A stretch of DNA of 64,000 bases. It comes from Orbilia blumenaviensis (Eukaryota; Ascomycota; Orbiliomycetes; Orbiliales; Orbiliaceae). Each line of letters starts with the position of its first letter. Positions within the stretch are counted from its first letter, which is position 1. Of the stretch, positions 18,363 to 21,533 are shown one piece after another. The stretch spans positions 806,001 through 870,000 of the forward strand of contig JAVHNS010000002.1 of assembly GCA_036872755.1 (NCBI GenBank), given 5' to 3'. The notes below the pieces were generated by a model. The model did not search any database, had not been told where the DNA came from, and saw only the letters and a program-made list of their open reading frames with translations. The position numbers and the translations under genes were made by a program.

Positions 18363-21300
18363 ATGAGCCTCGTTCACGATACCTCCAAGAAGGCTCGTTC
18401 CACGCCGCAATTTATCACACCACTGACCGCATATAAGAATTCCATCCCTGTCCCAGATCGGTATCTGGAAGGGTTCTGGTCGATATTCGAACCCCGAATA
18501 AACCTAGCACACGCGAATGAAGCAACAAGGGTACTAGAGTACCGCCAAAGTTTAGCAAATTGTGGATTTCAGCCAGCTCGTGCCGGCAGTATTGCCAGAG
18601 TATCGCCATTTAACTCCATCATTTTTTCTGAGGCGGAACCTGAAAAAGTGCTCTTAGTAGGGCCACTGAGTGACCTAGCGTTTCTAGAAAATAGTGAGTT
18701 CTTGGGTGGGATAAATTAAATAACCCGATACACTGCCATGCAGCCGTTCCTAGAAGTGGTGAAGATGCTGACACATGTGCCCCTGTGAATCACATGTAGA
18801 TGGGATCAACGGAGAGAGATTCTTGAAACCTGGTGTATGAAAATCATATGCCCCACGTTAAGGGGGACAAGTAAAATATTTGAGACTAGTCCACCAGTCT
18901 AATTATACCTAAATTTTTAGTGCGAAGAGGTTATCGATGAGGCAAAATTGATGAGAGAACATCATATCACGCTCCAACAACTGAAAGCTAAACATATGTT
19001 GGAGATGCTGAATGCAAATGAGGACGCGATTCAATACATCGAGGGCTACGACGTATGGACTGCTCAGGTAAAGCAAATGGATGCTTTAGATGGATATATA
19101 TTCAAAACGATCGAAGAATACATGGATAACAGGTTTCACTCCGCTAACGTAGCGTTAGTTAACCCACGCCCCATCATAAACTGAAATTAATACCTGAGGT
19201 TGCTAATATATAATGGTTTCATTACCACTGATTAATTAAGTGGACTAAGCATGTGTTGCGATTTTTGCTACAGTCTCAAGCTCACGGACGAGGAGTATAA
19301 GGCCTGTGAGCCTATAAGACAATTTGGAGTGGGCATCGGTGCGCTGGGGAACGATTGGGTCTCAGCTGAAATCGAATGGATAGTTAAAGCAGAGAGTGGA
19401 GCCGAGTTGCCTTATGTGAACGGCGTCTTTGTCATCATGCACAACATGGGGCTTTCTTTCTCTGAATCGAAAGAAATCCTGAAGTCTAAAGCCCAACAAA
19501 AAGAGCGCGAGTTTTGGGATATCTGCCGTCAGGTCGAGGCCCGGTTCAACTCGTTTGCGGTTAGACAATACATCACGATATATATGCTTTTAATCGGGGG
19601 ATCCTTATGCTGGCACATGAATCATGCCCGATACGATGTTGATCCGGACCATCCGTTCTACCCCAGGCCAGACTATACCATATCCGACTATCAGCGATTA
19701 GCGGGGCTGCGAATACTACCCGGCAAGATAGATTGTAAAGAAAAATTATGCAGGGCTAACGATACTTCTTTAGGTAAACATTCAAATCTTTCATGCATGA
19801 ATTATAAGCCCATGAGTACTCGAGTAAAATATAGTTCTGTAGCTCGTTTTATCTAACTATCGGGGCCAGGATTCGAATCTAATGAATGTCTAAACGCACC
19901 CCAAACCAGCACTAGGGTGACCAAGAAGGTGCAACAAGTTTCTAAACCCGGTTCGCAGTCATGGCTTTCGGCCTACCACAAGCTTTCAGACGAGGTAAAC
20001 CCACGTTGCCTGTGCCAGAGTCAAATTCAGCTTTTGTATTCGGATACTCAGTTGATATATCGATAACCCACACAGATAATATTGGAACCATACAAATATA
20101 TTACCTCACTGCCCTCAAAAAGGATACAGAAGTCTATCCTCCAAGCTCTGAACGCTTGGTACATTGTTCCAAATGATACTTTAGAACTCACCGATTCCGT
20201 GATCAACATCCTACTCAACTCCTCTCTTATGTAAGCGCGCATCCCCAGGCAAGGTAATGGCTTTGAGGACTCGATAATCTACTCTGATTTCATCTAATTT
20301 GCAGGCGGCAATAATATGATATCCTGCAATGATATATTAACATTCGATAGAATCGACGATATTGAGGACAACTCGGAACTACGTCGAGGAAGCCCCGCTA
20401 CACATGTGGTTTTTGGAACGCCTCAAGCGATTAACACGGCAAACTATTTATTCGTGAAAGCGCTCGAGGAAGTTCGGAGGTTGTCCCCATCCGCAATTGA
20501 AATATACATTGGTACGTTTTGAAAGAAACACCCAATATCTCTGCAGGTCTGTGGTACTATGTACCTTGTCCTGTATTGCGGGACAGGAGACAACAAGACT
20601 AGTCAGTTGGGGTCAGCACTAACTACTAAAACGGATATGTTAATTCATGTTGGTTTCGTCTAGACGAGCTTCGTTACCTTCACATCGGTCAAGGTCTGGA
20701 CCTTCATTGGACTTTTCATGCCGAATGTCCATCCGAGCTAGATTATATCCGAATGATTGACGGAAGTACGGACACCCTCCTTTAAATTTGGAAAACCCAA
20801 CTAATCAGTTCCGGAGGTTCATCTTACATCTTAACGGTTTTTGCTAACTAGCTTCAAATCCATAGAGACTGGAGGGCTTTTCAGAATGGCATCCCGCCTA
20901 ATGAGAGCGCATGCTACGTGTAATCGGTAAGTAGTCCAGTCTCAATACTTCTTCTAGCGACGTGTGTGAGGCGACTAAAATTTGCCTTTGCTATAGAAAT
21001 CTCGAGGTAGAAGACTTATTCACTATTTTCGGGCGTTACTTCCAAATAAGAAACGACTATCAAAACCTTTGCTCAGAAGATGTAAGTTACAACCGAGTAT
21101 TAGATTTAAGCTTGTTTACAAAAGCTAAAATTATTGTTACATCGGCCAGGGCGCTATGTCAGATCTCGACGAGGGCAAATATTCATTTATACTTATCCAT
21201 GGCCTCCAACATGCTAAAGACGGACAGCTGAGAAGCTTGGTTCGGCAACGATGCAAGCAAGGAATGCTTTCGGGGGCGCAAAAGGGCCTTGTTATGAAGC

Positions 21301-21533
21301 AATTGAACAGGACTAAAAGTTTGGAGTATGCAACAATGGTCCTCCAGGAATTGCAGGTTGAGTTTGAAAACAAACTCCAGGCCCTAGAGTCTACTATTGA
21401 CGCGTCAAAAGGTAAAAATTGGATTATTCGTGCCATAATGAGGCGGTTGGCTGTGAAGGTCCCTAAATTTCAAGATTTCGATACTATCCCGGAACCAAAG
21501 CCTCAGGAATCTCCAGAAGGACCTCGCGTGTAA
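18363..21533 (+). CDS. Bifunctional terpene synthase (cyclase-prenyltransferase chimera)
   Basis: Eleven-exon model, about 733 residues: 18363-18693, 18744-18784, 18921-19153, 19250-19773, 19870-19994, 20076-20230, 20351-20511, about 20665-20766, about 20867-20926, 20997-21081, 21150-21533. The N-terminal class I cyclase shows EKVLLVGPLSDLAFLEN, an NDWVSAEIE triad (NDxxSxxxE) and WHMNHARY (RY pair). A short linker leads to a polyprenyl-diphosphate synthase domain with EPYKYITSLPSKRI, ALNAWYIVP, IIDDIEDNSELRRGSPATH, LRYLHIGQGLDLHW, DGKTGGLFR, GRYFQIRNDYQNL and DLDEGKYSF. This order is that of fusicoccadiene/ophiobolin-type synthases, which make C20 or C25 prenyl diphosphate and cyclise it. Oddities: the first cyclase motif reads ENTVP instead of DDxxD, and the second prenyltransferase motif starts with Asn. 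No tailoring genes adjoin. Family is confident; product and full activity are unknown. Confidence 0.88.

What the first reader, a model, noticed from the sequence alone, without database searches (positions are those of the whole stretch)
18363..21533. Bifunctional terpene synthase of fusicoccadiene/ophiobolin type
Splicing eleven exons gives a cyclase fused to a prenyltransferase, the architecture that makes fungal di- and sesterterpenes. Each exon junction I could test keeps phase, and both halves show family motifs (NDWVSAEIE, WHMNHARY; SLPSKRI, IIDDIED, GQGLDLHW). The sequence is clearly diverged from what I know of the family, so the product may be new.
Basis: partly seen in the sequence, partly recalled or inferred. 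Interest (0 to 1): 0.85.

Follow-up and report, generated by a model that had tools for sequence, protein, structure and literature searches.

The report
Fused terpene synthase lacking its aspartates
An Orbilia fungus carries one open gene joining the two enzymes that normally build complex terpenes, but the metal-holding aspartates that start ring formation have become asparagines, so it probably no longer makes a ring-shaped terpene in the usual way.

Summary
Eleven GT-AG exons (18363-21533), all ten introns in phase, give an open 739-residue cyclase-prenyltransferase fusion. The gene is Orbilia blumenaviensis TWF730_005058; that 471-aa entry equals my first 470 residues, then stops in an unspliced intron and so lacks most of the prenyltransferase. 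It lies in an Orbiliomycetes clade (24 rows, 100/100), nearest relative 45% identical.

The interpretation needs correcting. The cyclase DDxxD reads N-N-G-I-N. The first place is Asp in 44 of 44 other full-length relatives, and none of these has lost two of the three acidic residues. The prenyltransferase's second motif is NDYQN, not DDYQN. The other metal motifs and the frame are intact, and the cyclase fold is predicted intact. Asp-to-Asn is concentrated here: 6 of 18 conserved Asp columns, against 5 of 419 cells in 23 relatives.

The active synthase SmTS1, with a degraded motif, keeps the active-enzyme rival alive. No transcript or assay exists here.

The parts
18363..18693 (+). exon 1: start codon, cyclase N-terminal helices, ends ...DLAFLEN + 1 base
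   Evidence: identical in the depositors' model P0001
18690..18810 (+). cyclase first metal motif NNGIN (residues 110-114; split by intron 1: 18690-18693 and 18800-18810), DDxxD in relatives
   Evidence: codons AAT AAT GGG ATC AAC; ungapped on the ED-D-xx-D-G stretch of the family profile; 44 of 44 other full-length rows have D at the first place
18800..18834 (+). exon 2 (35-base micro-exon)
   Evidence: best of 305 open 5' models, 845.1 bits; runner-up 843.3 has the same motif, best model without it 841.9; same exon in the depositors' model
18921..19153 (+). exon 3: cyclase middle, ends EEYMDNRFHSANVA; R193 is the pyrophosphate-sensor position
   Evidence: alternative end 19132 scores 14.3 bits less
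19241..19773 (+). exon 4: cyclase C-terminal half
19350..19376 (+). cyclase second metal motif NDWVSAEIE (residues 237-245), intact
19629..19634 (+). RY pair (residues 330-331), intact
19870..19994 (+). exon 5: inter-domain linker
20076..20230 (+). exon 6: start of prenyltransferase (LEPYKYITSLPSKRI...)
20231..20350 (+). intron 6, unspliced in entry TWF730_005058, which ends at the in-frame stop 20232-20234
   Evidence: P0001 shares residues 1-470 with the model and then ends in M; stop read from the sequence
20351..20511 (+). exon 7: first Asp-rich motif DDIED (20355-20369), intact
20664..20765 (+). exon 8: GQGLDLHW
20866..20926 (+). exon 9: KTGGLFRMA
20997..21096 (+). exon 10: second Asp-rich motif, NDYQN (N598 codon AAC at 21052-21054)
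   Evidence: D in 44 of 44 other full-length rows; wider set of 200 rows: 191 D, 1 N, 1 H, 7 gaps; exon end 21096 scores 10.9 bits above 21081
21150..21533 (+). exon 11: C-terminal helices and stop codon

Best explanation
This is a real, single, frame-intact gene descended from the fungal bifunctional terpene synthases, in an Orbiliomycetes branch. In relatives the C-terminal half condenses DMAPP and IPP into a long prenyl diphosphate, and the N-terminal half binds it through Mg2+ held by DDxxD and the NSE motif, ionises it and closes rings. Here the cyclase keeps its predicted fold, NSE, pyrophosphate-sensor Arg and RY pair, but all three Asp of DDxxD are Asn, so the Mg2+ ions held there should bind poorly and ionisation should be lost or very slow. 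The prenyltransferase keeps its first Asp-rich motif and KTGG but has NDYQN as its second, so it is probably slowed. The most likely state is a retained protein with a cyclisation-impaired domain, at most a weak prenyl diphosphate synthase or an acyclic-product enzyme. Shown by computation: gene, frame, motifs, clade, predicted fold. Inferred: the loss of catalysis and the retention.
Against: SmTS1, an active sesterterpene synthase, naturally has NDLTV in place of DDXXD plus changes in the NSE motif and the sensor Arg (PMC8450962, passages), although it keeps one motif Asp. Asn can ligate Mg2+ (recalled), and a non-acidic second position occurs in 12 of 44 full-length relatives (N 7, S 4, T 1). 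Over all 45 full-length rows the query is second, not first, for cyclase departures (4 of 15), and fifth for the prenyltransferase (7 of 69). The query is not consistently faster than P0002: relative-rate chi-square above 3.84 with 2 of 9 outgroups for the cyclase and 3 of 9 for the prenyltransferase. No expression or activity data.
Confidence: 0.5

Rival explanations
1. An active bifunctional synthase in which NNxxN still ligates Mg2+, helped by the intact NSE motif and sensor Arg, making an unusual cyclic or acyclic di- or sesterterpene.
For: NSE, Arg and RY intact, predicted fold intact; SmTS1 works with a degraded motif (PMC8450962); clade I and clade II enzymes both include acyclic producers (PMC8307374).
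Against: None of 44 full-length relatives has lost even two of the three acidic residues; the prenyltransferase motif is changed too; no P450 hit in the window, nearest listed on that contig about 440 kb from the gene (a lower-bound search).
Confidence: 0.22
2. A recently inactivated gene on its way to being lost, part of a family-wide decline in this species.
For: Both active sites hit; most conserved-column departures of 24 rows in the cyclase; of the three other fused-family loci found in the genome one matches only with eight stops read through (introns not excluded), one has altered motifs, one is prenyltransferase-only.
Against: No stop, frameshift or lost splice dinucleotide in 2,220 coding bases and ten introns; three Asp-to-Asn changes in five codons are unlikely within the short neutral span that an open frame allows (at 0.03 per site below 3e-5 by simple arithmetic, after the fact).
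Confidence: 0.23
3. The motif is misread: the true transcript uses a different exon near 18694-18920.
For: Exon 2 is only 35 bases and its score margin over models with other exons is small (845.1 against 841.9 bits).
Against: N110 is in exon 1; 0 of 305 open models hold DD there; the depositors' model uses the same exon; the profile aligns it without gaps.
Confidence: 0.05

Closest known systems
Orbiliomycetes bifunctional synthases, nearest P0002 (Dactylellina cionopaga, 721 aa)
   Same: Same architecture, NSE, DDIED; sister in the tree at 100/100; 57% identical in the prenyltransferase
   Different: P0002 keeps DDITE and DDYQN; only 34% identical over cyclase and linker
Fusicoccadiene synthase PaFS and variediene synthase (solved structures)
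   Different: Cyclase motif Asp lost here; 16-20% identity over the structural matches
MpMS D114A/N115A, a laboratory variant
   Same: Cyclase metal motif replaced, prenyltransferase domain kept (PMC9177416, passages)
   Different: Laboratory change in the cyclase only, as far as the passages say; here natural, with the prenyltransferase's second motif changed too
SmTS1, bacterial sesterterpene synthase
   Same: Naturally degraded aspartate-rich motif (NDLTV) (PMC8450962, passages)
   Different: Keeps one motif Asp, and is active

Membership tests
fungal bifunctional (chimeric) terpene synthases | cyclase and prenyltransferase in one reading frame of about 700 aa | tested here: met
   739-aa model, PF19086 and PF00348 both over cut-off; no transcript
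fungal bifunctional (chimeric) terpene synthases | DDXXD/E in the cyclase | tested here: not met
   NNGIN
fungal bifunctional (chimeric) terpene synthases | NSE/DTE motif in the cyclase | tested here: met
   NDWVSAEIE
fungal bifunctional (chimeric) terpene synthases | first Asp-rich motif in the prenyltransferase | tested here: met
   DDIED
fungal bifunctional (chimeric) terpene synthases | second Asp-rich motif DDXXN/D in the prenyltransferase | tested here: not met
   NDYQN
fungal bifunctional (chimeric) terpene synthases | common descent with the family | tested here: met
   inside a 24-row Orbiliomycetes clade, 100/100
fungal bifunctional (chimeric) terpene synthases | makes a di-, sester- or triterpene | not testable with these tools
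   needs expression and GC-MS
clade II, type B cyclisation | groups with clade II enzymes | not tested
   PMC8307374 (passages) puts the five Orbiliomycetes genes it had in clade II; my tree has no labelled clade references
fusicoccadiene/ophiobolin-type synthases | groups with enzymes of that name | tested here: not met
   the five rows so named in the tree lie outside the Orbiliomycetes clade; names are database labels, not assays

The most novel reading that the evidence does not exclude
The cyclase is switched on after translation. Two of the three motif asparagines are followed by glycine (N111-G112, N114-G115). Asn-Gly is the pair most prone to spontaneous deamidation (recalled, no call), and G112 occurs in none of 44 other full-length rows, where 42 have a hydrophobic residue. 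Deamidation at both would give N-D-x-x-D. The enzyme would then be a slow, ageing-timed cyclase whose metal site is made by protein chemistry and not by the gene. Against it: Asn-Gly pairs as such are not rare in the family (3 in the query, median 2), and G115 is inherited (G in 20 of 44).
Probability: 0.03. Interest if true: 0.85.

Novelty: new variant of a known kind. Interest (0 to 1): 0.42.

Why it matters
Of 74 chimeric synthases tried in yeast in one study, 40 gave no di- or sesterterpene, and the authors list mutated motifs and wrong exon predictions among possible reasons (PMC8307374, passages). This gene is a natural case of both: a database model cut at an unspliced intron, and a cyclase with every Asp of its first metal motif replaced while the frame stayed open. 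It makes directly testable whether such domains are dead, changed or kept for assembly and channelling.

Tried and rejected
Rejected: cyclase and prenyltransferase as two genes (phase is kept through the linker exon; the depositors' model also crosses from the cyclase into the start of the prenyltransferase). Rejected: my first splice choices for exon 2, the end of exon 3 and the end of exon 10, replaced after alignment. Rejected: repeat-induced point mutation as the cause of Asp-to-Asn (indices 0.84 and 1.17 for the gene, 0.81 and 1.22 for the window; no Glu-to-Lys). Not supported: a terpene gene cluster. Thirteen neighbouring frames were scanned, not the whole window (3, 10); those with a match over the cut-off are a nucleoporin, an AAA ATPase lid, an alpha-galactosidase, an FMN dehydrogenase, a GMC oxidoreductase, ANAPC2 and two pieces of a Zn2Cys6-type regulator. 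The two oxidoreductases lie about 18 and 22 kb from the gene, so tailoring genes are not excluded. No P450 hit was listed within 430 kb of the gene on its contig; that search is a lower bound.

Led nowhere: the search with alignment A2 returned only 2 proteins, so the motif counts rest on the hits. The prenyltransferase-only search listed no O. blumenaviensis protein for the second half of this gene in its length range. Literature: ten searches, open-licence PMC text only; one held paper, PMC8307374, has both 'Orbiliomycetes' and 'terpene synthase'. Papers seen as passages: PMC8307374, PMC9177416, PMC8450962; all others as search listings only, including genome papers on nematode-trapping fungi that I did not open.

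Rows left out: one search used P0002-P0074, 73 of the 93 relatives, plus my model in place of P0001. Searches kept the 45 rows (query included) covering 85% or more of the query; the 24 Orbiliomycetes rows of these calls and of the tree differ slightly in make-up. One search used 48 of the 74 rows; 26, mostly fragments and near-copies, were dropped by hand.

Full report
What was claimed.

The gene. Joining exons through GT-AG introns gives eleven exons: 18363-18693, 18800-18834, 18921-19153, 19241-19773, 19870-19994, 20076-20230, 20351-20511, 20664-20765, 20866-20926, 20997-21096, 21150-21533. All ten introns keep phase and the 739-residue frame is open. Pfam finds Terpene_syn_C_2 (37.9 bits, cut-off 23.7) and polyprenyl_synt (172.7 bits, cut-off 27). 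A profile built from 23 Orbiliomycetes relatives scores the model 845.1 bits; three alternative models score 834.2, 830.8 and 811.7. The largest cyclase exon's frame alone is under the Pfam cut-off (21.7 bits) and the exon-wise PF19086 search of the genome did not list the locus.

Where it is. The first homology search returned a 471-aa protein from a contig of 4,463,927 bases, the length of the window's contig C2: TWF730_005058 of Orbilia blumenaviensis. Its first 470 residues equal my final model and it then ends at a stop inside intron 6. A search with the prenyltransferase half listed no further O. blumenaviensis protein for this part in the length range searched. So the fused reading is more complete than that entry.

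Relatives. Of 94 hits, P0001 is the gene itself and the next 33 are Orbiliomycetes by name, as are P0036, P0037 and P0085. In a tree of 48 rows (from 74) the 24 rows labelled Orbiliomycetes form one group at 100/100; a Penicillium protein (P0035) joins them next. The query pairs with P0002 of Dactylellina cionopaga at 100/100, 45% identical over 694 columns. Identity to P0002 is 34% over cyclase and linker and 57% over the prenyltransferase. The five rows labelled fusicoccadiene or ophiobolin F synthase lie outside; two of them, P0040 and P0045, are 17% identical over cyclase and linker.

The unexpected part. The cyclase's first metal motif reads N-N-G-I-N (codons AAT AAT GGG ATC AAC). It aligns without gaps to the E-D-D-x-x-D-G stretch of the family profile. 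Among 44 other full-length rows the first place is D in 44; the second D in 29 (N 7, S 4, E 3, T 1); the third D in 30, E in 13 and S in 1; no other row has lost two of the three. In the larger alignment of 73 rows the first place is D in 49, S in 1 and a gap in 23. The first N lies in exon 1, and none of 305 open 5' splice models has DD at residues 101-130. The choice of exon 2 itself rests on a small score margin (845.1 against 841.9 bits), on the depositors' model and on the ungapped fit.

The other motifs. NSE (NDWVSAEIE), the sensor Arg 193 and the RY pair are intact, as are the prenyltransferase's DDIED and KTGG. The second prenyltransferase motif is NDYQN; the first place is D in 44 of 44 other full-length rows and in 191 of 200 in a wider set, with 1 N, 1 H and 7 gaps; the other N is P0098, a prenyltransferase-only protein of O. 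oligospora.

Decay or retention. At columns conserved in 90% or more of the other Orbiliomycetes rows the query departs in 9 of 29 cyclase columns (first of 24) and 14 of 123 prenyltransferase columns (fourth of 24); over all 45 full-length rows it is second for the cyclase (4 of 15) and fifth for the prenyltransferase (7 of 69). At Asp columns it has 6 Asn in 18, against 5 in 419 cells of 23 relatives, yet no Lys in 20 Glu columns (Fisher 0.0067 one-sided, chosen after seeing the data). A general G-to-A bias would not give that. Relative-rate tests against P0002 with nine outgroups pass 3.84 in 2 of 9 for the cyclase and 3 of 9 for the prenyltransferase, so the cyclase half is not specially accelerated. 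The open frame limits any neutral period: at 0.03 substitutions per site 4.06 disabling substitutions are expected, P(none) 0.017; at 0.02, 2.71 and 0.067 (substitutions only).

Genome context. Two searches of the genome with Orbiliomycetes proteins find, besides this gene and weaker matches on C17 and C8:811 kb that I take for ordinary prenyltransferases (my reading of the translations), three other loci: C5:429047-431734 with IKDIYSAERDW in place of the NSE motif; C8:1951495-1952873, a prenyltransferase-only gene (TWF730_010677, P0101); and C1:863993-864679, matching the prenyltransferase only, with 8 stops in the stretch read through, introns not excluded. As far as these lower-bound searches show, none of the four has a complete canonical set of motifs, which would fit a shrinking family in this species. 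No P450 hit was listed within about 430 kb of the gene on the contig.

What is known. In PMC8307374 (passages) DDXXD/E and NSE/DTE in the cyclase and DDXXD/N in the prenyltransferase were among the selection criteria; 34 of 74 candidates were active; all five Orbiliomycetes genes were in clade II. In PMC9177416 (passages) MpMS D114A/N115A had an inactivated cyclase and still made HexPP. In PMC8450962 (passages) SmTS1 is active with NDLTV, a changed NSE and no sensor Arg, which is the main evidence against calling this cyclase dead.

Verdict. Descent from the bifunctional family is well supported, but two defining catalytic motifs are tested and not met, so it is not filed as a canonical active member. 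I favour a retained protein with an impaired cyclase (0.5) over an active unusual enzyme (0.22), recent decay (0.23) and a misread exon (0.05).

Noticed in passing
G000:C8:1951495-1952873 (locus L009): Prenyltransferase-only gene TWF730_010677 (P0101); Orbilia and Arthrobotrys proteins P0099, P0100 and P0102-P0104 (311-369 aa) are likewise 49-51% identical to the query half: probably a freestanding prenyltransferase group derived from the fused family.
   Followed up: partly
G000:C5:429047-431734, minus strand (locus L010): Second fused-type locus with Lys in place of the NSE Asn, IDDVEESPSKRQG in place of IDDIEDNSxLRRG, and RDDHKR as second prenyltransferase motif.
   Followed up: partly
G000:C1:863993-864679, minus strand (locus L012): Apparent remnant of the prenyltransferase half; eight stops in the stretch read through, introns not excluded.
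   Followed up: partly
P0098 (Orbilia oligospora, 354 aa): Also has NDYQN as second motif, and lacks the SLPSK motif; a possible independent case of the same change.
   Followed up: no
P0096 (Cladobotryum mycophilum, 382 aa): A prenyltransferase from a fungus outside Orbiliomycetes (recalled) is 58% identical to this half, against 48% or less for the other non-Orbiliomycetes hits that cover 90% or more of the query; possible gene transfer.
   Followed up: no
G000:C1:4272388-4272967: A separate PF19086 terpene synthase locus with no PF00348 hit listed beside it.
   Followed up: no
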